The notes beneath the pieces are model-generated. The model searched no databases. It was given only the letters and a program-made list of their open reading frames with translations, and was not told the origin of the DNA. 64,000 nt of DNA from Pseudogemmatithrix spongiicola (GTDB lineage Bacteria; Gemmatimonadota; Gemmatimonadetes; Gemmatimonadales; Gemmatimonadaceae), in contig NZ_CP130613.1 in assembly GCF_030623445.1 (NCBI RefSeq), positions 2,666,001-2,730,000 on the forward strand, written 5' to 3'. The translations under genes were made by a program, and so were the position numbers. Shown one piece after another: positions 20,382-39,631 of this stretch (positions are counted from its first letter, which is position 1; each line of letters starts with the position of its first letter).

Positions 20382-21787
20382 GCTTGCGGCACGTCTGCGG
20401 CACCGTCCTCCTGGGTGCGGTGCTCGTCGCCCCAAGTCACCTGCCGAGCCAATCGCCGCCGATGGCGCCGTCGGCCGCGCTCGCCCGCGAACTCCTCGCC
20501 GAGATGGTCGCCGCACGTACGCTTGACACCGGCAACACCACGCCGCTCGCCGAGTCCCTCGCCCGCCGCTTCCGCAGCGCCGGCTTCCCCACGGCCGACG
20601 TCATGGTCGTCGGCGCCGGCCCCAGCAACCGCAACTTGGTCGTCCGCTTCCGCGGCCGCGACAGCACCCGCGCCCCCATCCTCTTCCTCGCGCACCTCGA
20701 CGTCGTCGACGCCGAGCCGCAGCGCTGGCGCACCGACCCGTGGACGCTCACCGAGCGCGACGGCATGCTCTGGGGCCGCGGCGTCCTCGACGACAAGGGC
20801 CCGGCGGCGACCATTGCCGCCGCCTTCCTCGAGGCGAAGGCCGCAGGCTTCACACCGCAGCGCGACCTCGTCATGGCCCTCACCGCCGGCGAGGAGAGCG
20901 GCGTCGACAACGGCGTGCAATGGCTGGTCGCGAATCGCCCGGACCTCGTGCGCGCCGAGTACGTGGTGAACGCCGACGGCGGGGGCGGCGAGATGGAGAA
21001 CGGTCGCCGCATCGCCTTCAACGTGCAGGCGGCGGAAAAGGTCTACCTCGACCTGACGCTCACGGTGAAGGGGCCCGGCGGCCACTCGTCGATGCCCGAC
21101 GGCCCGAATCCGATCGAACGCCTCAGCAACGGCATCGCGCGCCTCGCGCGGCACGAGTTCCCGGTGAACATCACGCCGGTCGTGCGCAGCTACCTCGCGC
21201 AGCGCGCCCCGATGACGCCCGGCGAGCTGGGGCGGGCAATGGCTGCCCTCGGACGCAATCCGCAGGACTTCACGGCGGCGCGCACGCTCAGCGCCACGGC
21301 CACGACCAACGCCCTGATCCGCACGACCTGCATCACGACGCTCATGAGTGGCGGGACCGCACCGAACGCCATCCCCGCGACGGCAACCGCGAACGTGAAC
21401 TGCCGCGTCATTCCCGGAGAGCGTCAGGAACACATCGTCGAGGCCATCCGCCAAGCCATCGCCGATCCGACCGTCGAGATCGCCGTGCGCGAACCGATGA
21501 AGCCCAGCGAGCCGAGCCTCATGGGTCCGGAACTCCGCGCCGTGCTCGAGAGCACCATCACCGACCTCTACGGCCGCCTGCCCGTCATCACCTACATGGA
21601 GATGGGCGCTACCGACGGACTCTATTTGCGCTACGCGGGCATCCCGGTATTCGGGATCATCGGGCTCTTCGCGCCCAACGACATTCTCGCCTCACTGCAC
21701 GGCAATGACGAACGCGTACCCGTTGAGGCTTACGCGCGGTCCGCAGAGTTCATGCGGCGTTTGGTGCGGGCCCTCGGCACGCGCTGA
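20378..21787 (+). CDS. Secreted M20 family metallopeptidase
   Basis: 469 residues from a GTG overlapping the previous stop (GTGA). A signal peptide covers about the first 25 residues. The dinuclear zinc site of the M20 family is clear: H106 and D108 in AHLDVV, bridging D138 in GRGVLDDKG, E172 and E173 in TAGEESG. The dimerisation domain contains GGHSSMPDGPNP. It should act as a carboxypeptidase or dipeptidase in the periplasm. The last 58 bases overlap the end of the Rrf2 gene on the other strand. Confidence 0.9.
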   Translation: MSLRHVCGTVLLGAVLVAPSHLPSQSPPMAPSAALARELLAEMVAARTLDTGNTTPLAESLARRFRSAGFPTADVMVVGAGPSNRNLVVRFRGRDSTRAPILFLAHLDVVDAEPQRWRTDPWTLTERDGMLWGRGVLDDKGPAATIAAAFLEAKAAGFTPQRDLVMALTAGEESGVDNGVQWLVANRPDLVRAEYVVNADGGGGEMENGRRIAFNVQAAEKVYLDLTLTVKGPGGHSSMPDGPNPIERLSNGIARLARHEFPVNITPVVRSYLAQRAPMTPGELGRAMAALGRNPQDFTAARTLSATATTNALIRTTCITTLMSGGTAPNAIPATATANVNCRVIPGERQEHIVEAIRQAIADPTVEIAVREPMKPSEPSLMGPELRAVLESTITDLYGRLPVITYMEMGATDGLYLRYAGIPVFGIIGLFAPNDILASLHGNDERVPVEAYARSAEFMRRLVRALGTR

Positions 21788-22215
21788 CCGCGCGAGCCCG
21801 TGCGCGGCCGCGGCACCTCACGGCCCGCCATCCGCGCGACGGTCGTCTCGTGCAAGAAGGCGAGCACGCGATCCGCGATGGGCTTCCAGGCCTCATGCGC
21901 TTCGCAGGCGGCCGCGGCGTTGCAGCGCCCGCCGCCGAGCAAGCAGCCTCGGTACCGGGCAGGCGGATCGAACGGCTTCACGACTTCCGCGAGCGTGAGT
22001 GCGTCGGCGGCCCGGCCGAGCCGGAACCCGCCGCCTCGCCCGCGACGCGACTCGAGCACGCCGGCTGCCGCAAGCTGGTGCAGGAGCTTCGAGAGGTAGT
22101 TGGCCGGCACGTCCACGTCGGTTGCGAGGTCGTTGGCCTGTGCCCAGACGCCGGGCTCCAGCTTGGCGAGCCGCACGGCGACGCGCACCGCGTACTCGGC
22201 GCTTTGGTTCAGCAT
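21730..22215 (-). CDS. Rrf2 family regulator with three cysteines (NsrR/IscR-like)
   Basis: 161 residues. MLNQSAEYAVRVAVRLAKL begins the winged helix, followed by PANYLSKLLHQLAAAGVLESRRGRGGGF, the DNA-reading part. C91, C98 and C104 (C-x6-C-x5-C) match the place where IscR/NsrR bind a [2Fe-2S] or [4Fe-4S] cluster. A long basic tail of ~35 residues follows. Such regulators sense NO or cluster status. It is the third gene of the minus-strand operon that starts with the cytochrome b fusion, so it probably controls that operon and the divergent heme-copper operon. That target is an inference. It could instead be an IscR-like Fe-S regulator. Confidence 0.88.
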   Translation of the reverse strand: MLNQSAEYAVRVAVRLAKLEPGVWAQANDLATDVDVPANYLSKLLHQLAAAGVLESRRGRGGGFRLGRAADALTLAEVVKPFDPPARYRGCLLGGGRCNAAAACEAHEAWKPIADRVLAFLHETTVARMAGREVPRPRTGSRGQRVPRARTKRRMNSADRA

Positions 22216-22264: not shown

Positions 22265-22801
22265 TCACGGGGTGCGGAGCTGGAGCCGACCGTCGACGAG
22301 TGCGACGAGTGCGACAGCGGAAGCGGAGAGCGTCACGGTAGTGTCAAGCGTCAGGTCGCGCGGCACGGCGCCGCGCCGGACATTGCTTGAATCCATCGGG
22401 GCCTCCGCCGGTTCCACACGGGCGAACCGAATCACGACGCGTCGCTGACCGGGGGAGACGGGGAACTCATCGAGCACGAAGATCGCACGGTCATTGCGCA
22501 GCCCACCGCCCCGGAGCACACGGTCTTCGTGGGATGCACCGTCCACCGCCAGCGACAGCCGGTAGGTGGCCGACGCGCCGCTGCACTCGCGCGCTTGCCG
22601 CATGTGGGCGGGCCGAGTGGCGAGTTCCTCGGGCGTGAGGTCGCGGCATTGCTCGATGCGTTCCGGACGCGCCACCCACGAGAGGCGCACGACGGCCGCG
22701 TCGGCCCCATGCCAGCGCACGTCGGCGGCTGAGCTCTTCGCCAGGAGCCAGCCAAAGCCGACGGTCACGACGAGCGCCACGATGCGACGACGCCAGGTCA
22801 T
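22265..22801 (-). CDS. Membrane-anchored periplasmic protein of the heme-copper locus, unknown
   Basis: 178 residues. A single N-terminal membrane segment (RRRIVALVVTVGFGWLLA) is followed by a periplasmic beta-rich domain with two cysteines (EQCRDLTPEE and ARECSGASA) and LAVDGASHEDRVLRGGG. No family is recognised. It overlaps the cytochrome b fusion gene by four bases (ATGA at 22801-22798) and precedes the Rrf2 gene by 49 bases. The tight coupling suggests it serves the same respiratory protein, perhaps as a periplasmic subunit or assembly factor. Confidence 0.65.
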   Translation of the reverse strand: MTWRRRIVALVVTVGFGWLLAKSSAADVRWHGADAAVVRLSWVARPERIEQCRDLTPEELATRPAHMRQARECSGASATYRLSLAVDGASHEDRVLRGGGLRNDRAIFVLDEFPVSPGQRRVVIRFARVEPAEAPMDSSNVRRGAVPRDLTLDTTVTLSASAVALVALVDGRLQLRTP

Positions 22802-24369
22802 GCCTCGACCTCGGCCGGCAATGGCTCGCACAGCAAGCGAATATCCACGTCCTCCTCCACCTCAGGGCCATCGAGCGCCGTCACGGCGGCCACAAACGCG
22901 CGATACTCGGCGAGCGTCGCATCCGAGAGGCCGGCGGGTGCCGTCGTGAGGCAGACGCGCCGACGATCCACACGGGCCTGCAACTCGGCTTCCCGGTCGT
23001 GGAACATCCGCAAGTCGGTCCACTTGGGACCCTCGCGCGCCGCGCAATCACGCGGTGGGCAGCCGGCGACGAACACCCCGGCCGCGCCCTGCCGGAGCAA
23101 CAGCTCGATCACCGAGGTGTGCAGGGTGCCGATGCACGGCACCTCGTGCAGCGTCGCACCGGCGTGTCGCAGGTGCGCGCGCAGCGCCATGTCGGTCTGT
23201 CCGCAGTACACCGCAACGATCCGGGGACCGTTGCCGAGCGCACGGAGCTGTGGTAGCAGCGCGCTGCGAACGTCCACCAGTTGGTGCCGACCCGTGCGTC
23301 CTTCGGGGCCCACACCCATGGGCGCGCAGGACGCCGCGCAGATGCCACAACTGACGCAGAGGGCGGGATCCACCAGCGCGACGAGGGTCGGCCGGTTGTC
23401 CGTGCGCGGCACCATCGTGATCGCGCCCCACGGGCAATCCTGTGTGCACTGGTCACAGCCCGTGCAGAGGCGCGGATCCACCACGCTCGGCGCGAACGAA
23501 CCCTCGCGTGGGCGGCGCGTGAGCCACGGGACGGATACCGCGACCGCGAGCAGCAGTACCGTTGCGCCCCAGACGAGCAACGGGGGTCGCGACTCGGCGA
23601 GTGGGATCCACCACGCCGTGCTGAAGTTGAGCGGCGTGGTGGCGGGCACACGCAGCGCATCGGCCGCGGGCCCAAGCGGCGCGGGCATGGCGACTGCCAG
23701 CGCAATGAGTCCGAGCGCGAGGCCCCAACGCAGCGCGCGGGGCGGTGCGAGCATCGGGCGCGCGACCTTCGAGACATGCAGCCACAGACCGATGCCCATG
23801 CCCAGCGGCAGGCCGATGTGAACGAACAGATTGAGGAAGAAGAACGCCGACGGCATCGCACGGTCGCCGGCGAAGATGCGGCTCACGGGCTCGGAGAGCA
23901 CCGGCAGCACATCGAAGAGCCGCGCACCCGCCAGCGCCACGCGCTGTCCGAAGGAATCCCACGCCATCACGAAGCCCGTCCACGCGCAGGCGAGCCCGAT
24001 GCCGACCAGCGCGACGCCGGAGATCCACGCGCGGGCCCGCGGGCCCCAGCTGCGCGCTTGGCCAAACACGCGCAGCCCGTGAATGACCGCGGCCACGAGG
24101 AAGAGATCGGTGGCGTAGCGATGCACGCTGCGCATCCAACTGCCGAGCCACGGGTCGGCAGCGATGCGCTGCACGGAGGCCGCGGGCGCACCGACGCGAT
24201 AGAACAGGATGAGATAGAGTCCCGTGACCGTGAGCACCGCGAGCAGGTATGCGGCGATCGTGCCGCTCTGGTGCAGCGGATTGAGTCGCCAGACGGCGAC
24301 GCGGTGCATGGCGGCGTCGGCAACGCGCAGGCTTCGGCGCGTGGCGCGTTCGAGGTGTCGGAGAATCAC
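22798..24369 (-). CDS. Cytochrome b - 2x[4Fe-4S] ferredoxin - MvhD-like fusion protein
   Basis: 523 residues. Residues ~30-280 are a cytochrome b N-terminal domain. Four heme-ligating histidines are present as H83/H97 and H184/H198, each pair spaced H-x13-H as in bc1 cytochrome b. The C-terminal cytochrome b part with the PEWY quinol loop is absent. Two [4Fe-4S] motifs follow: C302, C305, C308, C312 and C338, C341, C344, C348. Residues ~380-475 resemble MvhD/FlpD, the [2Fe-2S] subunit linking hydrogenase to heterodisulfide reductase, with C389, C412, C437 and C442. The protein should pass electrons between membrane quinone or hemes and cytoplasmic iron-sulfur or thiol partners. GTG 24369 is used; ATG 24309 is an alternative. 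It is divergent from the heme-copper operon. Confidence 0.88.
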   Translation of the reverse strand: MILRHLERATRRSLRVADAAMHRVAVWRLNPLHQSGTIAAYLLAVLTVTGLYLILFYRVGAPAASVQRIAADPWLGSWMRSVHRYATDLFLVAAVIHGLRVFGQARSWGPRARAWISGVALVGIGLACAWTGFVMAWDSFGQRVALAGARLFDVLPVLSEPVSRIFAGDRAMPSAFFFLNLFVHIGLPLGMGIGLWLHVSKVARPMLAPPRALRWGLALGLIALAVAMPAPLGPAADALRVPATTPLNFSTAWWIPLAESRPPLLVWGATVLLLAVAVSVPWLTRRPREGSFAPSVVDPRLCTGCDQCTQDCPWGAITMVPRTDNRPTLVALVDPALCVSCGICAASCAPMGVGPEGRTGRHQLVDVRSALLPQLRALGNGPRIVAVYCGQTDMALRAHLRHAGATLHEVPCIGTLHTSVIELLLRQGAAGVFVAGCPPRDCAAREGPKWTDLRMFHDREAELQARVDRRRVCLTTAPAGLSDATLAEYRAFVAAVTALDGPEVEEDVDIRLLCEPLPAEVEA

Positions 24370-24497: not shown

Positions 24498-24665
24498 ATG
24501 GATCCCACTCGGGACGAACAGGGCGACGAGCCCGTGCCGCGGCTGCAGCGGCTCTTCGACAACATGTGGTTGCTGCTGATCGTCGGTATGGTCGTGATGC
24601 TGGTCGTGTACACCGGCTGGGGGATGTTCGAGATCCTCACGATGCCGGAAGCCACCCTTCCCTGA
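24498..24665 (+). CDS. Small single-helix subunit of the heme-copper enzyme
   Basis: 55 residues: an acidic N-terminus (MDPTRDEQGDEP), then one membrane helix (WLLLIVGMVVMLVVYTGW). GGAGG lies seven bases before the ATG. Its place 16 bases before subunit II and its form match the small IIa/CcoQ-type helix subunits of oxidases. It probably completes the subunit II membrane part or stabilises subunit I. An upstream in-frame start at 24414 would sit inside the promoter and is rejected. Confidence 0.72.
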   Translation: MDPTRDEQGDEPVPRLQRLFDNMWLLLIVGMVVMLVVYTGWGMFEILTMPEATLP

Positions 24666-24681: not shown

Positions 24682-25287
24682 ATGCTCACCAAAGTGCACA
24701 CGGGACTCGATCCCGTCCCCGGCGTGTGGTGGAAGCCGGCCCACAAGTCCGAGAAGATCTGGGTCGGCATCGCCTTCGTGTGGTGCATGATCCTCTTCGC
24801 GATGATGCCGCTCTGGCACTGGAAGGGCGGCCAGAACCCGTCGGGCATCCGTCGCAAGGTCGATCCGCAGGCGTTCTACGCGCGCACCGTCGCCTTCGCC
24901 GCGCAGCACCAGATCGGCGATGACCGCGGCGTGCCGATCGTCGCGCCGCCGCCGGGCTCCGACATCTACCTCACGGCGATGGCCTACCAGTGGTATCCGA
25001 TCCTGCAGCTGGAGAAGGACAAGGAGTACACGCTGCACCTCTCCGCGCTGGACGTGAACCACGGCTTCAGCCTGTATCCGCTCAACGTGAACTTCCAGGT
25101 GATTCCGGGCTACGATTACGGCCTGCGCGTGACGCCGACGGCGAGCGGTGACTTCCGCATCATCTGCAACGAGTTCTGCGGCATCGGGCACCACACGATG
25201 GTGGGCCGGATGATCGTCGTGGACGAACAGGGCGCCGTCGTCGCCGACAACGAGTCGGCGAGCGTGCACGGGGAGGACCGGAAATGA
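24682..25287 (+). CDS. Heme-copper oxidoreductase subunit II (CuA)
   Basis: 201 residues. One membrane helix at ~26-46, then a periplasmic cupredoxin. The dinuclear CuA ligands are complete: H127 in DVNHGFS and C162, E164, C166, H170, M173 in CNEFCGIGHHTM. It therefore takes electrons from cytochrome c or a small copper protein and hands them to subunit I. The single helix and short length resemble ba3-type subunit II. The stop overlaps the subunit I start by four bases. Confidence 0.93.
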   Translation: MLTKVHTGLDPVPGVWWKPAHKSEKIWVGIAFVWCMILFAMMPLWHWKGGQNPSGIRRKVDPQAFYARTVAFAAQHQIGDDRGVPIVAPPPGSDIYLTAMAYQWYPILQLEKDKEYTLHLSALDVNHGFSLYPLNVNFQVIPGYDYGLRVTPTASGDFRIICNEFCGIGHHTMVGRMIVVDEQGAVVADNESASVHGEDRK

Positions 25288-27035
25288 CCGCCCCCGCCAT
25301 GACCGCGGAGTCCTTCCGCACCTGCGAAGTCACCGGCCGCAAGATCCATCGGCAGGCCGAGCTGCTGGTCCGGGCGAACGCCGTCGTCGCCGTGGTCGCG
25401 CTTCTGATCGGCGCGATCGCCGCGCTCCTGCTCGTGCTCACGCGCTGGCAGGCCGTGCACCTGCTGCCCGCCGACTGGTACTACCGGCTGCTCGGCGTGC
25501 ACGGCATGAACATGCTGATCTTCTTCATCATCTATTTCGAGATGGCGGTGCTGTGGTTCGCGGGCACCGTGCTGCTCAACGCACGGCCGGCGGCCCCGCG
25601 CTTCGGCTGGTTCAACTTCGGCCTGATGCTGCTCGGCACGCTGATGGTGGAGTGGGCCCAGTGGACCGGCCGCGCCGACGTGCTGTTCACGTCGTACACG
25701 CCGCTGCGCGCGCATCCCGTCTACTACCTCGGCATCATCCTCTTCGCCGTGGGCGCGCTGCTGGTCACGTTCCAGTTCTTCGCGACGCTGAGCATCGCCA
25801 AGAAGGAGCGCACGTACGAAGGCTCGATGCCGCTGGTCGTCTACGGCGCGCTGACGGCGGCGATCATCGCGGTGATCACGCTGGTGCACGGCGCGCTGAT
25901 CTACGTGCCGACCTTCCTGTGGTCGCTGAACCTGATGGAGATGCCCGACCCGCAGGTGTACCGGATGGTCTGGTGGGCGCTGGGCCACTCGTCGCAGCAG
26001 ATCAACATGGCCGCGCAGGTGGCCATCTGGTATATGCTCGGCGCGCTCACCGTCGGCGCCGTCGTGCTCAACGAGAAGGTGAGCCGCACGGCCTTCGTGC
26101 TCTACATCCTGTTCATCTCGATGGCCTCGGCGCACCACCTGCTGGTGGACCCGGGCTTCGGGCCGGCGTGGAAGATCACGAACACCTCGTACTTCATGTA
26201 TATGGCCGTGCTGGCCTCGATGATCCACGGCTTCACGATCCCCGCTGGGATGGAACTCGGGATGCGCTTGCGCGGCTACACCGAGGGCCTGTTCGGATGG
26301 CTGCGCCGCGCACCCTGGGGCGACCCAGGATTCAGCGCGCTGGTGCTCTCGGTGATCATCTTCGGCTTCGTCGGTGGCATCACCGGCGTCACGATCGGCA
26401 CGGAGCAGATCAACATCGTCGTGCACAACACGCTGCGCGTGCCGGGCCACTTCCACTCCACCGTGGTGAGCGGCACGGCGATGGCCTTCATGGGCGTCAC
26501 CTACTACCTGCTGCCGCTGGTGTTCCGGCGGAAGGTGGCGTTCTGGGGCCTGGCGAAGATCCAGCCGTACCTCTTCTCGCTCGGCGTGCTGCTGCTCGCG
26601 ATGGGCATGACCTTCGCCGGCAGCTTCGGCGTGCCCCGTCGGCACTGGGACATCTCGTTCAGCAACGCGCCCTACGGCGTGGAGTTCACGCCGGCGGTCG
26701 ACCTGATGCTCGCCATCATGGGCATCGGCGGCATCCTCGCCGTGACCGGTGCGCTGATCTTCATCGCGATTGCGGTGAAGTCGGTGTTCTTCGGCGAGAA
26801 GATCGAGACGATCACCCGCGGCACGGCGATGGTCGGCGTGCCGCAGGGCCTCACGCACCCCCCGGTGCACGCGGCCGATGCCGACGCCAGGAACGAGGAG
26901 TTCCACGCGCCGGCCCGCGGCTGGATGGGCCCGACGCCGGGGACGATCATCCTCGTCGCGGTGTTCTTCATCGCGTTCGTGACGTACTACTTCACCAACT
27001 GGAAGTTGCTGTCGTTCCTATGGAAGGTCGGTTGA
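25284..27035 (+). CDS. Heme-copper oxidoreductase catalytic subunit without the active-site tyrosine; probable non-canonical NO reductase
   Basis: 583 residues with about thirteen membrane helices. All metal ligands are present: H73 and H391 for the low-spin heme, H389 for the high-spin heme, and H235, H284, H285 for CuB (LGHSSQQ, SAHHLLVDPG, PGHFHS). In oxygen reductases of A and B type, the residue four after the first CuB histidine is the cross-linked tyrosine (HPEVY). Here it is Q239. The alternative helix VII tyrosine of cbb3 oxidases is also missing (isoleucine at that place). The HHLLVDPGF segment is closest to B-type oxidases. Published non-canonical NO reductases derived from oxidases, such as eNOR, lack this tyrosine, so NO reduction is the favoured role (from memory; not proven here). 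It is not cNOR/qNOR, whose HLWVEG motif is absent. Confidence 0.85.
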   Translation: MTAPAMTAESFRTCEVTGRKIHRQAELLVRANAVVAVVALLIGAIAALLLVLTRWQAVHLLPADWYYRLLGVHGMNMLIFFIIYFEMAVLWFAGTVLLNARPAAPRFGWFNFGLMLLGTLMVEWAQWTGRADVLFTSYTPLRAHPVYYLGIILFAVGALLVTFQFFATLSIAKKERTYEGSMPLVVYGALTAAIIAVITLVHGALIYVPTFLWSLNLMEMPDPQVYRMVWWALGHSSQQINMAAQVAIWYMLGALTVGAVVLNEKVSRTAFVLYILFISMASAHHLLVDPGFGPAWKITNTSYFMYMAVLASMIHGFTIPAGMELGMRLRGYTEGLFGWLRRAPWGDPGFSALVLSVIIFGFVGGITGVTIGTEQINIVVHNTLRVPGHFHSTVVSGTAMAFMGVTYYLLPLVFRRKVAFWGLAKIQPYLFSLGVLLLAMGMTFAGSFGVPRRHWDISFSNAPYGVEFTPAVDLMLAIMGIGGILAVTGALIFIAIAVKSVFFGEKIETITRGTAMVGVPQGLTHPPVHAADADARNEEFHAPARGWMGPTPGTIILVAVFFIAFVTYYFTNWKLLSFLWKVG

Positions 27036-27943
27036 CGTCCCCCGCGAGGCCACGGCCGCCGCTGGCGGCCGTGGCCCTCGCGGCCATCCTCGCCATCAGC
27101 GTGGCGTGGTGGGCCCTGGCCCTCTGGCCTTTGGAGCCCACTGCGCCGGAGTGGCTGCTTCGCACGCGTGAGGTCTGCTTCGGCTCCACGCACAGCGGCC
27201 TGCCGCACGCCGGTGGCTGGCTGCTGTTGATCGGCGAGCCCATCGGGCTCATCGGGTTCCTCGCCATCGTCTGGGGCGAGGAGCTCCGCGCCGACCTGCG
27301 ACGCATCCGTGCGCACGCGGCCGGCGGCGTCACGATGGCCGTGGTGGCCATCCTCGTCGTCTCCGGGCTCTTCGCCTCGGTGCGCCGCGTCGCTGCGGCC
27401 TCGGGCGGCGACGCCGAGCCCTTCGCGCTCAACGCCGACCTCCCGGCGCGCGGTTCGGCGCTGGCCCCGGCGCTCTCGCTCATCGACCAATCGGGCGAGG
27501 CGGTCTCGCTCGCGCAGTTCACCGGACGCTGGGTGATAGTCACTTTCGCCTTCGGGCACTGCGAGGACATCTGCCCCGTGATCGTCGAACACGCACGCCG
27601 TGCGCGCGCGGACGAAGGCGCCACGGACATCCCGATCTTCGTCGTCACGCTGGATCCCTGGCGCGACACGCCGGACCGCCTCGCGTTCATCGCCGGCGCC
27701 TGGCAGCTCGAGGGCGAGGACCGCGTGCTCTCGGGCTCGGTGGAGATCGTCAACGCCACGCTGGACCGCTGGCGCATCGCGCGCGAGCGCGACGAGAACA
27801 CCGGCATGATCGCCCACGGCAGCACCATCGTGCTCGTGGACCCGCAGGGTCGCGAGGCCTGGCGCGTGGAAGGCTCGCCGCAGCGCATTCGCGAAGCCAT
27901 CGCGCTCGCCCGCGTGGAGTCGAAGGCCAGCGAATCCCGCTGA
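27020..27943 (+). CDS. SCO1/SenC family copper chaperone with extra N-terminal membrane domain
   Basis: 307 residues, starting 16 bases inside the end of subunit I. The C-terminal thioredoxin-like domain has the copper-binding C181-x3-C185 (GHCEDICPV) and H266 (MIAHGS). SCO proteins deliver copper to CuA of subunit II, which fits its place. Unusually, the N-terminus has about three membrane helices (~17-33, ~62-80, ~98-115) and a THSGLPHAGG loop, where most SCO proteins have one helix. The added part may help to dock to the enzyme. Its stop is followed by the convergent cupin gene. Confidence 0.9.
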   Translation: MEGRLTSPARPRPPLAAVALAAILAISVAWWALALWPLEPTAPEWLLRTREVCFGSTHSGLPHAGGWLLLIGEPIGLIGFLAIVWGEELRADLRRIRAHAAGGVTMAVVAILVVSGLFASVRRVAAASGGDAEPFALNADLPARGSALAPALSLIDQSGEAVSLAQFTGRWVIVTFAFGHCEDICPVIVEHARRARADEGATDIPIFVVTLDPWRDTPDRLAFIAGAWQLEGEDRVLSGSVEIVNATLDRWRIARERDENTGMIAHGSTIVLVDPQGREAWRVEGSPQRIREAIALARVESKASESR

Positions 27944-27978: not shown

Positions 27979-28302
27979 TCAGTGCTTGCGGATGATTGAC
28001 GCGAGGATGCAGAAGCGCTCGGCGTCGGCGCGCATCCCGTGGAGCTCGCCGGGCGCGTAGGTCACCACCGTGCCGGGGCCTGCCGAGGTCTCGCCGTCGG
28101 GGCCGGAGATCGTCCCGCGCCCGCTGATCACCGTCAGCAGCACCGTCGCCTCGGACGTATGCGGCGCCACTTGCTGCCCCGGCTCGATGCGAAACACCAC
28201 CAGCCGCACGCCGGGCACATCGTGCACCACCGCCGTCGCCGGCCGGCTGGGATGGGCTTGCACCGCCGCCTCGGCCGCAGCCTGCACATCGAGGACGTTC
28301 AT
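27979..28302 (-). CDS. Cupin domain protein
   Basis: 107 residues forming one cupin barrel: VVFRIEPGQQVAPHTSEATVLLTVISG with one histidine of the usual metal site, a central GPDGETSAGPGTVV turn and APGELHGM at the second motif. It is small and cytoplasmic. Its start overlaps the DUF542 gene stop (ATGA), so the two are translated together. Cupins of this kind accompany DUF542/hemerythrin proteins of NO stress loci in several bacteria. Its ligand is unknown. Confidence 0.8.
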   Translation of the reverse strand: MNVLDVQAAAEAAVQAHPSRPATAVVHDVPGVRLVVFRIEPGQQVAPHTSEATVLLTVISGRGTISGPDGETSAGPGTVVTYAPGELHGMRADAERFCILASIIRKH

Positions 28303-28544: not shown

Positions 28545-28631
28545 CTATTGACCCGGCGCAAGCCATTCTCACTGCACCAACGCAGCTGCCCTCCGACCGC
28601 CCGCCTCACTCGCCTCCGCTTCCCGGCCGCC

Positions 28632-29267
28632 GTGTACGAACCGACACCGCTCACCCCGAGCCATCGCGGCGTCCTCGACGCGCTCAAGCGTCGCGGCCGC
28701 AGCACCGTCCCCGAGCTGGCCCGCGAACTCTCGCTCAACGTCGAGACGCTGCGCGAGCATCTCCAGACGCTCGAGGCGCGCCAGCTCGTCGCGCGCGTCG
28801 GCAGCGCCAAGGGCGGACCCGGACGGCCGAGCATCCTCTACGCGCTCACGGAGAGTGCCGAGGCGCTGTTTCCGCGCAACGAGGGCGAGCTGCTGCGCGG
28901 ACTCTCGGCGTTTCTCGTCGAGGCCGGCCACACGCCCCTGCTGCGCAAGTTCTATGACCGGCAGCTCGCCGAGCGTCGCCGTGCCGCGATGGCGCGCGTG
29001 GAGGGACTCGAGGGCGAGGAGCGCCTGCAGGAAGTGCTGCAGATCTTCACCGAGTTGGGCTATATGCCGGAACTGGACGAAGTCGACGGCGCGCCGCGCC
29101 TGCGGCTCTGTCACTGCCCCGTGCGCGATATGGTCGCTGCGACGCACGTGCCCTGCCGCGCCGAGATCTCGCTGCTGCGCGACCTGCTCGGCGAGGATCC
29201 CAAGCGCGTCAGCTTCATTCCCGACGGCGCGGAGTCCTGCAGCTACCAGCTCGACGTCCGCGGCTGA
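28632..29267 (+). CDS. SufR-like (COG2345) helix-turn-helix regulator with iron-sulfur cysteines
   Basis: 211 residues from GTG 28632. Residues ~8-75 form a winged helix (GVLDALKRRGRSTVPELARELSLNV is its core, given here in part as KRRGRSTVPELARE). A coiled dimer region follows with LRKFYDRQLAERR. The C-terminal domain has C160, C162, C175 and C203 (LCHCP, PCRAE, SCSYQ), the placing seen in SufR and related regulators that bind a [4Fe-4S] cluster. The cluster can sense NO or oxidative damage. It probably controls the divergent DUF542/cupin pair through the palindrome at 28527-28544 and also itself. An upstream ATG at 28548 is possible but adds an atypical basic segment. Confidence 0.82.
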   Translation: MYEPTPLTPSHRGVLDALKRRGRSTVPELARELSLNVETLREHLQTLEARQLVARVGSAKGGPGRPSILYALTESAEALFPRNEGELLRGLSAFLVEAGHTPLLRKFYDRQLAERRRAAMARVEGLEGEERLQEVLQIFTELGYMPELDEVDGAPRLRLCHCPVRDMVAATHVPCRAEISLLRDLLGEDPKRVSFIPDGAESCSYQLDVRG

Positions 29268-29588: not shown

Positions 29589-30632
29589 TCAGCCGGCCGC
29601 GGCGGCGGGTTCGTGCCGCAGCGGCACCCACACCGCGTGCACCGCGAGCACGCCCAGCGTGAGGGCCAGCGTGCCGACGAACTGGTGCAGCACGCCGAGC
29701 GCGACGGGCACCGCCATCAGCAGCGTGACGATGCCGAGCCCGAACTGCACGGCGATCGCCATGCCGAACCAGCGCACGGCGGTCGCGCCGTACTCCCCGA
29801 GGATCTCCGGCCGCGCGCGCCAAGCGAGCACGAGACTGAGAATCCCCGTGAGCGTGGCCAACACGCGATGGTGGAACTGCGCCGCGACGGGATTCTCGAA
29901 CGCGTTCGTCCACCAGCCGACCAGCGCCTGGTAGCCCGGCGGCACGACCTGGCCGCCCATCAGCGGAAACTCGTTGAACACCTTGCCGCCGCGCAGGCCG
30001 GCGACGAACGCGCCGGACACCACGGTGATCGCCAGCAAGCTCACGACGCCGAGCACCGCCCAGCGCCACGGCGCCTCGGCGCGCACTTCCTCACGCCTGG
30101 GATCGAGGTCCGCCCAGGTCCAGAGGGCGATGACGAGGATCGTCAGCGCGAGCGTGAGGTGCGCGGCGAGCCGATACGCGCTCACCTCGGTGCGCACCTC
30201 GAGGCCACTGCTCACCATGTACCAACCGAGCACCCCTTGGGCCAAGGTCAGGAGCGGCAGCCACGCCAGTCGCATCGCGTAGCGTTGCGGCATCGTGCCC
30301 TTGGCGACGAAGTACAGGAAGGGAATCGCGAAGACCAATCCCACGGCGCGCGCGGCGATGCGATGGAACCATTCCCACCAGTAGATCCACTTGAACTGCG
30401 CCATCGTGATGCCGGCGTGCGTGGTCTGCGCCTGCGGGATCTGCTGGAACTTCCGCAGCGCGTCGTCCCAGGCGGCCTCGTTCATCGGCGGGAACACGCC
30501 GGCCACCGGCTTCCACTCGGTGATGGAGAGCCCGCTCTCGGTGAGGCGGGTGATGCCGCCGATCACGACGGCGAAGAACACCGACACGATGCAGGCCATG
30601 AGCCAGCGTCGGACCGCGATGTGCTCGTGCAT
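29589..30632 (-). CDS. ctaA: Heme A synthase (CtaA/COX15 family)
   Basis: 347 residues with eight membrane helices. Conserved family segments are visible: GGITRLTESGLSITEWKP near the N-terminus, WEWFHRIAARAVG (heme histidine), RLAAHLTLAL, FHHRVLATLTG and LHQFVGTLAL with the paired histidines for the heme b cofactor and heme o substrate. It lacks the N-terminal extracellular cysteine pair of Bacillus CtaA, as in the proteobacterial/mitochondrial COX15 class. It converts heme O to heme A, so at least one heme a enzyme is made, perhaps the heme-copper enzyme encoded next to it. ATG 30632 is chosen. Confidence 0.92.
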   Translation of the reverse strand: MHEHIAVRRWLMACIVSVFFAVVIGGITRLTESGLSITEWKPVAGVFPPMNEAAWDDALRKFQQIPQAQTTHAGITMAQFKWIYWWEWFHRIAARAVGLVFAIPFLYFVAKGTMPQRYAMRLAWLPLLTLAQGVLGWYMVSSGLEVRTEVSAYRLAAHLTLALTILVIALWTWADLDPRREEVRAEAPWRWAVLGVVSLLAITVVSGAFVAGLRGGKVFNEFPLMGGQVVPPGYQALVGWWTNAFENPVAAQFHHRVLATLTGILSLVLAWRARPEILGEYGATAVRWFGMAIAVQFGLGIVTLLMAVPVALGVLHQFVGTLALTLGVLAVHAVWVPLRHEPAAAAG

Positions 30633-30707
30633 GCATGGACGATAGTCAGGACGCCGCCCGAGTGCTATCTCTAAAGCGTCACCTTCACCCGGAATCTGGA
30701 CACGGTA

Positions 30708-31946
30708 ATGAGCGCACCCCTCGGCGTCGGCTTCATCGGTTCGGGCTTCAACACCCGCTTTCACATCCAGGGCTGGCGCGGCGTCCGCGACGCGGACGTG
30801 CGCGGCGTCTGGTCACCCAACGCGGCGAACGCCGCCAGCGCGGCCAGGCTCGCCCGCGACTGCGACGTCGGTCAGGCGAAGGCCTACAAGTCCATCACGG
30901 CGATGGTCGCCGATCCGAACATCGACGCCCTCTGGCTCTGCGGCCCCAACCAGGCGCGCATCGAGAACGTCGAGGAGATCGTCCACGCCATCAAGAGCGG
31001 CAAGGGCACGCTCAAGGGCATCGCCTGCGAGAAGCCGCTGGCCCGCAACGTGGCCGAGGCCGAGGAGGTGCAGCGCCTCGTGAAGAGCGTGGGGCTCAAG
31101 ACGGGCTACCTCGAGAACCAGCTCTTCGCGCCGCACGTCGAGGCGGGCAAGAAGCTCATCTGGGCCCGCGGTGCGGCCACGACCGGCCGGCCGTACCTCG
31201 CCCGTGCCGCCGAGGAGCACTCGGGCCCGCACGCGCCGTGGTTCTGGAACGGCGCACTGCAGGGTGGCGGCGTGCTCAACGACATGATGTGCCACTCGGC
31301 GCTCGTCGTGCGTCACCTCCTCACCGAACCGGGCAAGCCGCTCAGCTCCGTGAAGCCCGTGCGCATCACCGGTCACATCGCCTCGCTCAAGTGGTCGCGA
31401 CCGAGCTACGCGAAGAAGCTCCAGAAGACCTACGGCCGCGCCATCGACTACACCAAGCGGCCCAGCGAGGACTACGCCAGCATCCTCATCGAGTTCAAGA
31501 CGGCCGACGGCCACAAGGTCATCGGCGAGGCCTCCACGTCGTGGAGCTTCGTCGGCGCGGGCCTGCGCCTCTCGGCCGAGTTGCTCGGCCCCGAGTATTC
31601 GATGAAGTGGAACTCGCTGGACTCCGGCCTCAACCTGTTCTTCTCGCGCGAAGTCACCGGCCGCGCCGGCGAAGATCTCGTGGAGAAGCAGAACGCCGAG
31701 CAGGGCGTGATGCCGGTCGTTCCCGAGGAGTACGCGGCCTACGGCTACACGAACGAGGACCGCCACTTCGTGCGCGTCTTCCAGGGCAAGGAGAAGGCGA
31801 TGCTCGACTTCGCCGACGGCGTCGAGGTGGTGAAGATGCTGATGACGGCGTACCGCTCGGCCGAGCAGGGCAAGACGCTGGCGTATCCCAACCGCGGCAT
31901 CGATCGCTATATGCCGAAGGTGGCCAAGGGCACCTGGCGGCCGTGA
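30708..31946 (+). CDS. Gfo/Idh/MocA family oxidoreductase
   Basis: 412 residues. The Rossmann fold starts GVGFIGSGFNTRFHIQGW, and the family EKP motif is ACEKPLARN. A C-terminal alpha/beta domain carries GGGVLNDMMCHS with a histidine at the active site. There is no signal peptide, so it acts in the cytoplasm with NAD(P). The substrate is likely a sugar or sugar derivative. It is coupled to the MFS gene that follows by a GTGA overlap, which suggests uptake and oxidation of the same compound. Confidence 0.9.
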   Translation: MSAPLGVGFIGSGFNTRFHIQGWRGVRDADVRGVWSPNAANAASAARLARDCDVGQAKAYKSITAMVADPNIDALWLCGPNQARIENVEEIVHAIKSGKGTLKGIACEKPLARNVAEAEEVQRLVKSVGLKTGYLENQLFAPHVEAGKKLIWARGAATTGRPYLARAAEEHSGPHAPWFWNGALQGGGVLNDMMCHSALVVRHLLTEPGKPLSSVKPVRITGHIASLKWSRPSYAKKLQKTYGRAIDYTKRPSEDYASILIEFKTADGHKVIGEASTSWSFVGAGLRLSAELLGPEYSMKWNSLDSGLNLFFSREVTGRAGEDLVEKQNAEQGVMPVVPEEYAAYGYTNEDRHFVRVFQGKEKAMLDFADGVEVVKMLMTAYRSAEQGKTLAYPNRGIDRYMPKVAKGTWRP

Positions 31947-33730: not shown

Positions 33731-34996
33731 ATGTCGTTCCGCACTCGCGGGACCGCGCATCTGCGCGCGCTCGTGTTGCTGGCCTGCCTCGCGGCACCAG
33801 CGGCCGCGCAGCAGGCCGCCGACCCGCTTCCTCTCGATTCCGCCGTGCAGCGGGCGCTGCGCGCGCACCCGCGCGTCGCCGCCGCCCGGGCCGCGCTCCT
33901 GGCCGCCGACGCCCGGACGCGGCAGGCCGCTGCGCTCGCCAATCCCAGTCTCTCGTGGCAGTACGAGCGCACCTCACGCGCCGGAGCCGAGAACTCACAG
34001 CACATCACGACGCTGGCGCAGCCGCTGGCCTTGGGCCAGCGCGCGGCACGCCGGGACGCCGCGGCCGCCGACGCGCAGGCCGCGGCCGCCGATCTCCGCG
34101 CCGCCGAGCTGGACGTCGCCGTGATGACGGTGACCGCCTACGCGGCGGTGCTCGAGGCCGAGCGACGGCTCAGCATCGCGACGCAGTCGGCGCGGGCCTT
34201 CGCCGAGGCGCAGCGCATCGTGGATGCCCGGCTCGCCGCCGGCGATGCGTCGGGCTACGAGCAACGCCGCGTGCAACTCGAGGCTGCACGCTACACGGCC
34301 GTGCGCGAGGCACGCGCCGTCGAGGCCCGTCGTGCGCGGCGCGCCCTGCGCGCACTCGTCGACCCCGCGCATCGTGGCGACGACGTCCCGTTCGCGCTCA
34401 CCTTCGACGCCACGCGCGCACCGACACTCAGTGACGACTCCCTGCTCGCGCAGGGCCTGGCGCAGCGACCCGACCTCCAAGCCGCGCGCGCACGCGTCGA
34501 AGCCCGCGTGGCCTCGGCGCGGCTCGCCCAATGGGAGCGCCTGCCCGTCCCGACGCTCGTCGGCGGCCTCAAGACCGAGACCGCCGCTGGGCTGGGCGCA
34601 CTGCGCGGCATCGCCGCCGGTGTCACCATCCCGCTGCCGCTGTTCGACCGCCGCACCGGCGCCCGTGATGCCGCCGCCGCCGATGCGGAGCAGGTACGGC
34701 AAGAGCTCGTTGAGCTCCAGCGGCAAGCCACGCAAGAGATCATCGCGGCCAGCGACGCGCTGCGCAGCGCTGCCACGCAGCTCGCCCTGCTCGAGCCGGC
34801 GCTCGGCGAGAATGCGGCACGCGCCCTCGCCGCCGTCAATGCGGCCTTCGCCGAGGGAGACATCCCGCTCGAGGCCTGGCTGAACGGCCTACGCGCATAC
34901 GACGAAGCCGAAGAAGCGTTCGCGACGCTGCGAGCGGACGCCCTCGTGCGCCGCGCCGAGTTGGCGCGCGCCATCGGCCAACCTTTCCTGGACTGA
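33731..34996 (+). CDS. Outer membrane efflux protein (TolC/CzcC family)
   Basis: 421 residues. A signal peptide ends near AAPAAAQQA. Two TolC repeats are visible, each with long helices rich in alanine and arginine; LAQPLALGQRAARRDAA and ITIPLPLF-type segments mark the barrel strands. It provides the outer membrane exit of a tripartite RND pump with the two following genes. The closeness of the next start (5 bases) shows one operon. Confidence 0.9.
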   Translation: MSFRTRGTAHLRALVLLACLAAPAAAQQAADPLPLDSAVQRALRAHPRVAAARAALLAADARTRQAAALANPSLSWQYERTSRAGAENSQHITTLAQPLALGQRAARRDAAAADAQAAAADLRAAELDVAVMTVTAYAAVLEAERRLSIATQSARAFAEAQRIVDARLAAGDASGYEQRRVQLEAARYTAVREARAVEARRARRALRALVDPAHRGDDVPFALTFDATRAPTLSDDSLLAQGLAQRPDLQAARARVEARVASARLAQWERLPVPTLVGGLKTETAAGLGALRGIAAGVTIPLPLFDRRTGARDAAAADAEQVRQELVELQRQATQEIIAASDALRSAATQLALLEPALGENAARALAAVNAAFAEGDIPLEAWLNGLRAYDEAEEAFATLRADALVRRAELARAIGQPFLD

Positions 34997-35001
34997 CTCC
35001 C

Positions 35002-36507
35002 GTGCCCTCTCTCCATACTCTCGTGCATTCGCGACGCGCCCTGCTGGCGCTCGCCCTTGGCTTCTCCGCAATGGCGGCCTGTGCCGATACGCCCGGCGAT
35101 GAGTCCGCGGCACCCGAGCGTGCCGGCGGCGTCATCACGCTCTTCACCGACTCCACCGAGCTCTTTATGGAGCACCCGGCGCTGATCGTCGGCGTGGGCG
35201 GCACGTTCGCCGCCCATCTCACCGACCTCACGGACTTCGCGCCGCTGCGCTCAGGACGCATCGTGCTCACATTCACGCCGCGCAGCGGTGGCGCGCCGCT
35301 CGTCGTCACGCAGGACGCGCCGCGCGTGCCGGGCATCTATGGGCCGGCACCCGTGTTCACGGCGCCGGGCATCTACGACCTGGTCATCGACGTCGAGAGC
35401 CCGCAGGCCCGCGACCGCATCGAGGTCCCGGGGCTCGTCGTGTATGCCACGGAGGACGACGCGCCCCTCGACGAGGGCGGCGAGGACGGCGGTATCGCAT
35501 TCCTGAAGGAGCAGCAATGGAAGACGCCGGGCTTCCGCACCGACTTCGCGGTTTCCGGCACGCTGGCGATCGCCGTGGACGTACCGGGCGAGGTGATGCC
35601 GGCGCCGGGTGCTGCGCAGGTCGCGCCGGCACCGGCGAGTGGTCTGCTCGAGCTCTCGCCCGATGCGCCGGCCGTCGGGATGCGCGTGCGCCGCGGCGAC
35701 GTGCTCGCCCGCGTCCGTCCTACGCTCGGTGACGGCGGCGCGAGCTTCGCCGACGCCCGCGCGCGGCTGCGCGAAGCCGAGGAGGAGCACGCCCGCGCCG
35801 AGCGCCTGCTCGCCGCGGAGGCGATTCCCGAGCGCCGGATGCACGAGGCGACCGTTGCGCTCGACGCCGCGCGTGAGGCGCTGGCGGCGATCGGCGGTGG
35901 TGCGATCACGGCGGACGGTCTGGTGGAACTGCGTGCCCCGATGGACGGCATCGTCACCGAACGCTGGGGGACGGCGGGCGCGCGCGTCGAAGCCGGCGCG
36001 CCGCTGTACTCGCTGGTGGATCCGTCGCGGCTGTGGGTCACGGCCTTCGTGCCGGTGGACGTCGTCGGCCGGGTGGACCGCGGCGCGCGGGCCGTCGTCA
36101 CGCCGGAAGGGTTCTCCGACCGCTTCGCCGCGCGCCCGCTCGGTGTGAGCGCCGCCGTGGATTCGCTGACCCGCGCCGTGCGCGTGAGCTACGCGCTCGA
36201 GGGCCTGCGCGAGCCGCTGCCCGTCGGTGCATTGGCGCGCGTGGCGGTACCCACGCGCTCGCGTGGGGCCGGCATCGTCGTGCCGGCCGGCGCGGTGCTC
36301 GACGAGGATGGCACGGCGATCGTGTTCGTGCAGACCTCCGGCGAGCGCTATGAGCGCCGCGTGGTGCAGGTGGATGGCGGTGACGGACGCTCCGTACTCG
36401 TCCGCAGCGGCCTCAACGCCGGCGAGCGCGTCGTCAGCGGGGCGGCGTACCACGTGAAGCTCGCCTCGCTCTCCACGGCCGTGCCTGCGCACGGCCACGA
36501 ACACTGA
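35002..36507 (+). CDS. RND periplasmic adaptor (CzcB-like) with N-terminal Ig-like domain
   Basis: 501 residues. The leader ends in a lipobox-like MAAC (C27). Residues ~40-150 form a beta-sandwich resembling YtkA/FixH-type domains. It is followed by the barrel-sandwich/lipoyl halves (RVRRGDVLARVRP and VELRAPMDGIVTERW), a hairpin of helices (ARLREAEEEHARAERLL) and the beta-barrel and membrane-proximal domains. It ends HGHEH, a possible metal site. It links the inner membrane pump to the outer membrane channel. The extra N-terminal domain is unusual for CzcB. Confidence 0.9.
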   Translation: MPSLHTLVHSRRALLALALGFSAMAACADTPGDESAAPERAGGVITLFTDSTELFMEHPALIVGVGGTFAAHLTDLTDFAPLRSGRIVLTFTPRSGGAPLVVTQDAPRVPGIYGPAPVFTAPGIYDLVIDVESPQARDRIEVPGLVVYATEDDAPLDEGGEDGGIAFLKEQQWKTPGFRTDFAVSGTLAIAVDVPGEVMPAPGAAQVAPAPASGLLELSPDAPAVGMRVRRGDVLARVRPTLGDGGASFADARARLREAEEEHARAERLLAAEAIPERRMHEATVALDAAREALAAIGGGAITADGLVELRAPMDGIVTERWGTAGARVEAGAPLYSLVDPSRLWVTAFVPVDVVGRVDRGARAVVTPEGFSDRFAARPLGVSAAVDSLTRAVRVSYALEGLREPLPVGALARVAVPTRSRGAGIVVPAGAVLDEDGTAIVFVQTSGERYERRVVQVDGGDGRSVLVRSGLNAGERVVSGAAYHVKLASLSTAVPAHGHEH

Positions 36508-36517
36508 GCGCCGCCCG

Positions 36518-39500: not shown

Positions 39501-39631
39501 AACTCCAGACCCCGATGGCCATCGTCATTCTCGGAGGCCTCATCTCCGCGACCGCACTCAATATGATCGTCCTCCCTGCGCTGTACGCGACGTACGGACA
39601 GCGTTCCACGCCCGCTCCGGAGCACCCGTGA
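36518..39631 (+). CDS. Heavy-metal RND efflux permease (HME family)
   Basis: 1037 residues with the twelve-helix RND layout and two large periplasmic loops. Conserved blocks include FPDLTAPTVTV, EEVEALVAFPIE and, in the fourth helix, VDDAIIDVEN (D409, D410, D414, E416), which carries the proton and metal relay acids. This LVDDAIIDVEN form differs from the DGAxxxVEN of zinc/cobalt CzcA and the DAAIVMIEN of copper/silver CusA. It resembles the HME class without a known metal. It pumps cations from periplasm or cytoplasm through the CzcC-like channel. Its stop overlaps the HupE gene by one base. Confidence 0.92.
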   Translation: MMNALIKWALQRRVVVLAAATLLLATGAWTAARLPVDVFPDLTAPTVTVLAEAHGMAPEEVEALVAFPIETAVNGATGVRRVRSSIAQGIAVIWVEFDWEMEIFRARQIVTEKLQAAAASLPDDLPPPVLAPVSSVMGEIMMIGLSWRGDTTPSLERAMALRTHADWTLRRRLLALPGVAQVIPIGGEVKQYQIHPDAERMRAAGITLGDLLRAAEGANVNASGGVYMDRGQEIVIRSVGRARSVEDIGATVVAARGGGAVTLAQVATVRVGPAPRYGDASVNALPGVVLAVQKQPGANTLALTERITEELAAIQPTLPEGMHIETELFRQADFITVAIRNVVHALRDGALLVVIILALFLANSRATAISVLAIPLSLAVAVLAMQLLGIGINTMSLGGMAIAIGALVDDAIIDVENVLRRLRENAVLAPEARRSVFDVVFDASVEIRSSIVNATAIIIVVFLPLFFLGGVEGRLLQPLGFAYVVSILASLVVAVTVTPVLCAWLLPASAEGAGAHDSRVVQWLKRHYATLLERVLNAPRRTLIGALAAFALTMATLPLLGTAFLPEFNEGALTVSVVTVPGTSLAEASAIGLRVERILKADSAVLNTDRRQGRAELDEHAQGVNAAELDVTLKPDVDKEALFARLRAQFASIPGTNVTIGQPIGHRIDHMLSGTRANIAVKIFGPDLQGLRGVGTAVRDAIQDVEGIADLQLEQQVDVPQLRLDVDRLALARYGLTPGDFAEAVDVAFNGEVVSQLLEEGRSVDLVVRLEESQRRSTEAIAAMPVATPTGQRVPIGRLARVTMTRGPNTISRENVQRKIVVQANVAGRDLGSAVEEIRARITRDVAMPPGYFVEYGGQFEAQEESTRTLLSLSVLAIAAIFLILYGEFKSARLATLVMANLPLALIGGVAAVALSGGVVSVASLVGFVTLFGIATRNGILLVTHYRQLESDGVSDHEAVLRGSLERLSPILMTALTAGLALIPLALGGGEPGNELQTPMAIVILGGLISATALNMIVLPALYATYGQRSTPAPEHP

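What the first reader, a model, noticed from the sequence alone, without database searches (positions are those of the whole stretch)
25284..27035. Heme-copper catalytic subunit with glutamine in place of the active-site tyrosine
All six metal-ligand histidines are present (H73, H235, H284, H285, H389, H391), but the tyrosine that oxygen reductases cross-link to the CuB histidine is Q239, and the helix VII tyrosine of cbb3 enzymes is missing too. That argues against normal oxygen reduction. Non-canonical NO reductases of oxidase origin (eNOR and relatives) lack this tyrosine, and one from Rhodothermus marinus is known to reduce NO. The enzyme here has a CuA subunit and a B-type-like helix VII, so it could be one of these families or a new one.
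Basis: partly seen in the sequence, partly recalled or inferred. Interest (0 to 1): 0.87.

Follow-up and report, generated by a model that had tools for sequence, protein, structure and literature searches.

The report
Nitric-oxide reductase (eNOR) gene cluster
The gene encodes a respiratory enzyme related to oxygen-using oxidases that most probably turns toxic nitric oxide into nitrous oxide; it belongs to a described enzyme family (eNOR), is common in this bacterial phylum, and sits beside an unusual, tightly linked electron-carrier gene.

Summary
In detail: the 583-aa heme-copper subunit I has all six ligand histidines, glutamine (Q239) replaces the cross-linked tyrosine, and the cbb3 helix VII tyrosine is Ile278. 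It is not a new family. Gln here, with a CuA subunit encoded just upstream, is the published mark of eNOR, a characterised NO reductase related to B-family oxidases. In a 54-row tree all 25 Q rows form one group (100/100), apart from Tyr-bearing B-type, A, C and cNOR/qNOR rows. About 84 of 395 Gemmatimonadota genomes carry the gene. A curated nirK lies beside it in 7 of 80 named loci, the nearest relative included. The host has no cNOR, qNOR or curated nirK, nirS, narG or nrfA, but has nosZ. Less ordinary is the divergent neighbour, a cytochrome b6 / HdrA-type ferredoxin / MvhD fusion, present in 79 of the 84 eNOR genomes and in 3 of the other 311. It may be an electron partner. NO turnover and that partnership are inferred, not shown. 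Murali et al. 2024, the key eNOR paper, could not be read.

The parts
25284..27035 (+). eNOR subunit I (heme-copper catalytic subunit); Q239 in place of the active-site Tyr; ligands H73/H391 (low-spin heme), H389 (high-spin heme), H235/H284/H285 (CuB)
   Evidence: roles of the ligands by homology to ba3 (recalled numbering)
24682..25287 (+). subunit II with CuA site (H127, C162, C166, H170, M173) and E24 at the place of ba3 E15
   Evidence: Pfam COX2 just above cut-off (22.3 against 22 bits); the five CuA ligands are in 85 of 85 aligned rows and E24 in 84 of 85
24498..24665 (+). small one-helix membrane protein (55 aa from the ATG at 24498)
   Evidence: homologue near subunit I in 76 of 80 named loci; M29 of the longer ORF reading is conserved in 69 of 78 rows, P42, Q45, D49, W69 and G70 in 78 of 78
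27032..27943 (+). SCO1/SenC copper chaperone with N-terminal membrane part (start not fixed)
   Evidence: PF02630 E 8.5e-23; C177, C181 in 77 of 77 and H262 in 76 of 77 rows; 75 of 80 named loci
22798..24369 (-). cytochrome b6-like / 2x[4Fe-4S] HdrA-type ferredoxin / MvhD (FlpD) fusion, divergent from the eNOR genes
   Evidence: heme ligands H83, H97, H184, H198 and 12 cluster cysteines in 71-74 of 74 rows; 79 of 84 eNOR genomes and 3 of 311 others
22265..22831 (-). 187-aa protein of no Pfam family, directly after the cytochrome b fusion
   Evidence: no Pfam match at E 0.05; 65 of 80 named loci
21730..22215 (-). Rrf2-family regulator with C91, C98, C104 (Fe-S type, NsrR/IscR-like)
   Evidence: PF02082 E 3.7e-27, TIGR00738 above cut-off; three Cys in 53 of 53 rows; 52 of 80 named loci
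29589..30764 (-). CtaA / COX15 heme A synthase
   Evidence: PF02628 E 1.1e-95; found within the fetched flank in 15 of 80 named loci
28548..29267 (+). SufR-like winged-helix regulator, loosely linked
   Evidence: 3 of 80 named loci
27979..28302 (-). small cupin protein, loosely linked
   Evidence: PF07883; 2 of 80 named loci; a cupin-like gene is also beside the Thermus eNOR

Best explanation
This is the two-subunit CuA-containing nitric oxide reductase eNOR. Electrons from a periplasmic cytochrome c or cupredoxin enter at CuA (subunit II), pass to the low-spin heme (H73/H391) and on to the high-spin heme (H389) and CuB (H235, H284, H285). Two NO molecules are reduced there to N2O and water. 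Because Q239 replaces the cross-linking Tyr, the site cannot supply the Tyr electron used in O-O cleavage, so O2 reduction is at best poor. Protons probably come from the cytoplasm through a B-family-like K path (subunit II E24; subunit I S312, H315, T318, N263, Y250), so turnover is probably electrogenic. In this host, which has nosZ but no recognisable NO-forming nitrite reductase, it most likely removes NO made by neighbours or arising chemically and passes N2O to NosZ. The Rrf2 protein is a plausible NO- or Fe-S-responsive regulator. Shown: ligands, Gln, CuA ligands, tree place, gene linkage. Inferred: electron donor, proton path, NO turnover, regulation, role in the cell.
For: Gln at this position plus a cupredoxin subunit II gene immediately upstream is the published eNOR criterion (PMC8756737, passages read); both hold here. 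eNOR is biochemically characterised and related to B-family oxidases (PMC11388526, passages). Tree: 25 Q rows on one side of a branch at 100/100; 18 Tyr B-type rows at 98/97; holding the Q rows with the A rows is rejected, p-AU 0.0046. Nearest solved chains are B-type ba3 and 7deg by sequence and by Foldseek with the model. Signature unlike B-type rows: Q238, Q239, N241, Y274, H315 in 88 of 88 Q rows against 0 of 18 Tyr rows; E86 in 88 of 88 against at most 1 of 18. A nirK over its curated cut-off lies beside the gene in 7 of 80 named loci, L074 (Ca. Eisenbacteria) among them. In 395 genomes nirK is in 22 of 84 eNOR genomes and 31 of 311 others (p 4e-4); nosZ in 40 of 84 and 86 of 311 (p 9e-4). 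Own genome: nosZ present; no cNOR/qNOR, no curated nirK, nirS, narG or nrfA.
Against: No activity data. No sequence deposited under the name eNOR was in the tree: the R. marinus, R. profundi and haloarchaeal enzymes were not retrieved, and the Thermus rows are not the accession named in PMC8756737. The co-occurrence tests are not corrected for relatedness, and most eNOR genomes (62 of 84) have no curated nirK. H391 reads K in 2 of 88 Q rows (possibly misalignment, not followed up). The model is middling (pLDDT 71.9, pTM 0.76) and low just at 284-290 and 369-388, so it says nothing precise about the site. By VIA-align, A-type, B-type and C-type chains are nearly tied at Z 26-28.
Confidence: 0.9

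Rival explanations
1. A B-family oxygen reductase that lost its Tyr but still reduces O2 (slowly or with another Tyr), kept for micro-oxic respiration.
For: Fold, CuA subunit and K-path-like residues are B-type; SCO and CtaA neighbours suit an oxidase. Y250 and Y274 are invariant in Q rows.
Against: Q rows form their own clade with several fixed site changes; I278 replaces the cbb3-type Tyr; nirK linkage. The genome already has an A-type oxidase and a cbb3 oxidase.
Confidence: 0.05
2. A bNOR (CuANOR), sNOR, gNOR or other non-eNOR reductase with a convergent Gln.
For: Several of these also carry a cupredoxin-type subunit II and are B-family related (PMC8756737 and PMC11388526, passages).
Against: Table A4 of PMC8756737 gives N for sNOR and CuANor, D for gNOR and E for cNOR/qNOR, against Q for eNOR. 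No reference rows of bNOR, sNOR or gNOR were in my tree.
Confidence: 0.03
3. An enzyme for another substrate, or a sensor or degenerate oxidase, rather than an NO reductase.
For: Most eNOR genomes in the phylum (62 of 84) lack curated nirK; PMC8756737 itself leaves open 'reducing NO or alternative substrates'.
Against: Metal ligands and CuA ligands are kept across the family, so it is under selection as a redox enzyme; nirK and nosZ association.
Confidence: 0.02

Closest known systems
eNOR (Hemp and Gennis; characterised enzyme reported by Murali et al. 2024, not readable here)
   Same: Gln for Tyr, six His, CuA subunit II just upstream, B-family relationship
   Different: Host phylum Gemmatimonadota. 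The divergent cytochrome b6-ferredoxin-FlpD gene is not mentioned in the eNOR passages that I read; it was not found in the fetched flanks of the Thermus and Thermomicrobium loci.
T. thermophilus cytochrome ba3 and other B-family oxygen reductases
   Same: Fold, CuA subunit with the E15-like Glu, several K-path positions
   Different: Y237 to Q239, Y244 to V246, T312 to H315, V236 to Q238, W239 to N241; separate clade
Defluviimonas sp. plasmid cluster (L086, NZ_CP156080.1)
   Same: 50% identical subunit I with Q; small ORF, subunit II, SCO, cytochrome b-ferredoxin-FlpD and a relative of the 187-aa protein in one cluster
   Different: heme O synthase CyoE and a hemerythrin in the cluster; winged-helix regulator instead of Rrf2
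Chloroflexi protein RME88945.1 (a domain table in PMC8756737)
   Same: listed with cytochrome b6, DMSOR-beta-like ferredoxin and FlpD domains
   Different: listed in a survey of the nitrite-reductase-linked C1 cytochrome domain, as I read the table, not for a link with eNOR
HdrA and MvhD of the methanogen Hdr-Mvh complex (PDB 5odc)
   Same: Ferredoxin part and FlpD part of the fusion match HdrA and MvhD
   Different: No HdrA flavin domain and no hydrogenase found in it; fused to a cytochrome b6-like membrane part

Membership tests
eNOR | Gln at the active-site Tyr position of subunit I (criterion of PMC8756737) | tested here: met
   Q239; 88 of 110 rows share it
eNOR | All heme and CuB ligand histidines kept | tested here: met
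   H73, H235, H284, H285, H389, H391
eNOR | Cupredoxin/CuA subunit II encoded immediately upstream | tested here: met
   24682-25287; CuA ligands in 85 of 85 rows
eNOR | Own clade near B-family, apart from A, C, cNOR and qNOR | tested here: met
   100/100 for 25 Q rows
eNOR | Groups with sequences named eNOR (R. marinus, R. profundi, Natronomonas) | not tested
   No such record was fetched; the Thermus rows are relatives, not the accession cited in PMC8756737
eNOR | One proton channel (K-type) | tested here: inconclusive
   E24(II), S312, T318, Y250 kept; Y244 and T312 positions changed to V246 and H315; no water or channel calculation
eNOR | NO reduced to N2O | not testable with these tools
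   no assay
B-family oxygen reductase | His-Tyr cross-link tyrosine on helix VI | tested here: not met
   Q239
C-family (cbb3) oxygen reductase | helix VII Tyr; C-type clade | tested here: not met
   I278; tree
cNOR/qNOR | Glu at the site; cNOR/qNOR clade | tested here: not met
   Q239; tree
bNOR (CuANor) and sNOR | Asn at the site (Table A4 of PMC8756737) | tested here: not met
   Q239; no reference rows in the tree
gNOR | Asp at the site (same table) | tested here: not met
   Q239; no reference rows in the tree
nNOR | not read in any held paper | not tested
   name only

The most novel reading that the evidence does not exclude
The cytochrome b6 / HdrA-type ferredoxin / MvhD fusion with its 187-aa companion is a dedicated electron-transfer partner of eNOR. 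It would be a Rieske-less membrane module with two b hemes, two [4Fe-4S] clusters and an FlpD cluster that couples a cytosolic low-potential redox pool and quinone to NO reduction, perhaps with crossed-over (bifurcating) electron flow. That would make this eNOR part of a larger, undescribed NO-respiring complex in Gemmatimonadota and some other phyla.
Probability: 0.3. Interest if true: 0.65.

Novelty: new member of a known kind. Interest (0 to 1): 0.38.

Why it matters
Two genome surveys of Gemmatimonadota speak only of NorBC or norB in the passages I read (NorBC in at least 9% of genomes in PMC9426454; norB by environment in PMC10581226). In the 395 genomes searched here about 21% (84) carry this eNOR-type gene, and 10 carry eNOR, curated nirK and nosZ together. 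Annotation pipelines call it cytochrome c oxidase (plasmid records), so NO and N2O budgets drawn from genomes can miss it. The tightly linked cytochrome b6-ferredoxin-FlpD gene gives a testable lead on how some eNORs get their electrons.

Tried and rejected
FNR/NNR-type boxes: no strict box anywhere in the window; with two mismatches 10 matches against 4.5 expected, none near the cluster's promoters. Upstream of subunit II a strict box is found in 1 of 80 loci (L086), so regulation by such a factor is not supported for Gemmatimonadota.

Model search: the AF2 model is too uncertain at the site to test whether another Tyr reaches CuB, and I found no coordinates among the script files. VIA-align did not separate A, B and C types.

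First tree: it held two very long rows (L095, L121), and my label rule put L096 into group C by its name; L095 (Tyr) joined the base of the Q clade at 98/92 on a branch of 3.12. The second tree drops L095 and L121 and mends the labels. Both give the Q clade 100/100.

The three genomes with the fusion but no eNOR (G109, G141, G177): in G141 and G177 the contig ends at the fusion gene; G109 is a real case. Of the five with eNOR but no fusion (G119, G175, G203, G326, G369), G119 and G369 show only fragments of eNOR at contig starts, G326 lacks the fusion in 15 kb, G203 is a 46% outlier, and G175 was not looked into.

napA, nirBD and other nitrogen genes were not searched in the own genome. The cNOR-like Sulfuricurvum row (L118) was fetched in the hope of a gNOR; it grouped with cNOR.

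Literature: searches. Only PMC8756737 holds FlpD together with cytochrome b and nitric oxide, and only it came up. Many 'enor' hits are other words. Murali et al. 2024 is not held, so whether it describes this gene cluster is unknown to me. PMC8780969, PMC12548093, PMC7618691 and PMC13386854 gave nothing useful.

Full report
What is there. The reported gene is real: window 25284-27035 (+), 583 aa, COX1 family at E 4.7e-62. Helix VI reads GHSSQQIN where B-type oxidases read GHPxVYFW; helix VII has Ile (I278) where the own cbb3 has its Tyr. The window lies in a single-contig 3.26 Mb genome, and the nearest named relatives are Gemmatimonadaceae MAGs.

The family. In an alignment of 110 rows, column 239 is Q in 88, Y in 20, A in 1 and a gap in 1. 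All twelve weaker Gemmatimonadota relatives that I read (L099-L108, L111, L112; 29-34% identity) have Y. Q238, Q239, N241, Y274 and H315 are in 88 of 88 Q rows and in 0 of 18 Tyr B-type rows, E86 in 88 of 88 and at most 1 of 18, while Y250, S312 and E324 are largely shared. H391 reads K in 2 of the 88. The 88 rows contain one duplicate record (L110 = L026).

Tree. With 54 rows (25 Q, 18 Tyr B-type, 4 A, 2 C, 5 cNOR/qNOR) every group is one side of a branch; Q 100/100, B-type 98/97. Holding the Q rows together with the A rows is rejected (p-AU 0.0046). The Q clade holds Thermus, Thermomicrobium, Defluviimonas, Ca. Eisenbacteria, Myxococcota and Gemmatimonadota rows. The cNOR, qNOR, A and C rows are plasmid records, most of them named by their annotation, and the host's own oxidases. 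Only 19 of the 80 named loci were in the tree.

Comparison with what is known. PMC8756737 (passages read) identifies eNOR by Gln at this site, says this separates it from other NORs and from oxygen reductases, notes subunit II immediately upstream and lists one predicted proton channel. PMC11388526 (passages) states that eNOR has been biochemically characterised, is related to B-family oxidases and reduces NO under micro-oxic conditions. PMC8114936 and PMC13274419 (passages) report eNOR genes in Zetaproteobacteria and in a verrucomicrobium, the latter with NirK.

Subunit II and proton path. The five CuA ligands are in 85 of 85 aligned rows; E24, at the place of ba3 E15 (that placement is my reading by eye, ba3 sequence recalled), is in 84 of 85. 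By the HMMER alignment to ba3 (ba3 numbers recalled), Y237, Y244, Y248, S261, S309, T312, T315 become Q239, V246, Y250, N263, S312, H315, T318. A K-type path is therefore partly kept and partly remodelled. This is inference from sequence.

Neighbourhood. Of the 80 named loci, counted without removing those cut by a contig end: subunit II 78, small ORF 76, SCO 75, cytochrome b6-ferredoxin-FlpD fusion 72 (69 of these divergent and upstream, as in the window), 187-aa protein 65, Rrf2 52, CtaA 15, nirK 7, SufR-like 3, cupin 2. All 7 nirK candidates pass the curated TIGR02376 cut-off: L006 (the 91% relative), L008, L024, L029, L057, L074, L076. The Rrf2 keeps three cysteines in 53 of 53 rows.

Genome survey. 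In 395 genomes of the phylum, 185 have some match to the protein and 84 have an eNOR-type match (46% identity or more, partial ones at contig ends included). Curated nirK is in 53, nosZ in 126. nirK: 22 of 84 against 31 of 311 (p 4e-4); nosZ: 40 of 84 against 86 of 311 (p 9e-4); all three genes in 10. The fusion gene (full or long partial match at 45% identity or more) is in 82: 79 of 84 eNOR genomes and 3 of 311 others (Fisher p 7e-73). I measured the distance for 25 of the 79 pairs: all 25 are on one contig, 24 of them 0.8-1.7 kb apart, the other 8.7 kb. None of these tests corrects for shared descent, but the fusion is also beside eNOR in L073, L074, L076 and L086, from other phyla or unplaced, with other gene orders.

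The fusion gene. Residues 27-203 match cytochrome b6 structures, 294-351 the HdrA ferredoxin part and 389-466 MvhD. H83/H97 and H184/H198 fit two b hemes; eight ferredoxin cysteines and C389, C412, C437, C442 are kept in 71-73 of 74 rows. The host also has another cytochrome b (521-aa frame) and an NrfD-type protein as in alternative complex III, so quinol can probably reach cytochrome c without the fusion. What the fusion does is not known.

The host. PF00115 finds five places: an A-type oxidase, a CcoN-CcoO-like cbb3, this gene, and two short sub-threshold matches. nosZ is present; curated nirK, nirS, narG and nrfA are not. The simplest role is NO removal and respiration feeding N2O to NosZ.

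Verdict. An eNOR: known family, well supported, function inferred. The unusual part is the linked cytochrome b6-ferredoxin-FlpD gene, which I offer as the novel reading at 0.3.

Noticed in passing
22798-24369 (-), with 22265-22831 (-): Cytochrome b6 / HdrA-type ferredoxin / MvhD fusion and a 187-aa protein of no Pfam family; the fusion tracks eNOR across the phylum (79 of 84 genomes).
   Followed up: partly
L005:1486-1947 (G000:C1 about 2320568-2321029), next to nosZ at G000:C1:2318037-2319836: 153-aa protein that matches only the first third of COX1 (E 7e-7, below cut-off), close to nosZ; function unclear.
   Followed up: no
L004:379-2604 (-): Membrane protein stretch weakly like the start of COX1 (33.7 bits, below the cut-off), followed by a 358-aa ORF with no Pfam match, near a cysteine desulfurase-like ORF.
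   Followed up: no
L006, L008, L024, L029, L057, L074, L076: Copper nitrite reductase genes lie within 10 kb of eNOR; in five of the seven the nirK ORF also scores weakly against a cbb3 subunit III (cytochrome c) model at its C-terminal end.
   Followed up: partly
L088 (12001-13659) and L089 (12001-13338), Thermus thermophilus plasmids: eNOR-type genes annotated as cytochrome oxidase lie beside an Rrf2 regulator, a DUF542 gene and an AraC-binding/cupin gene; a cytochrome P460 gene is nearby in L088.
   Followed up: no
L086, Defluviimonas plasmid, upstream of subunit II at 7406: The only strict NNR/FNR-type box found upstream of subunit II (1 of 80 loci).
   Followed up: no
33731-39631: Outer-membrane efflux protein, HlyD/CusB-type adaptor and AcrB-family pump in a row.
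   Followed up: no
10954-13812: 952-aa protein with five Big_2 immunoglobulin-like repeats and a weak PPC match.
   Followed up: no
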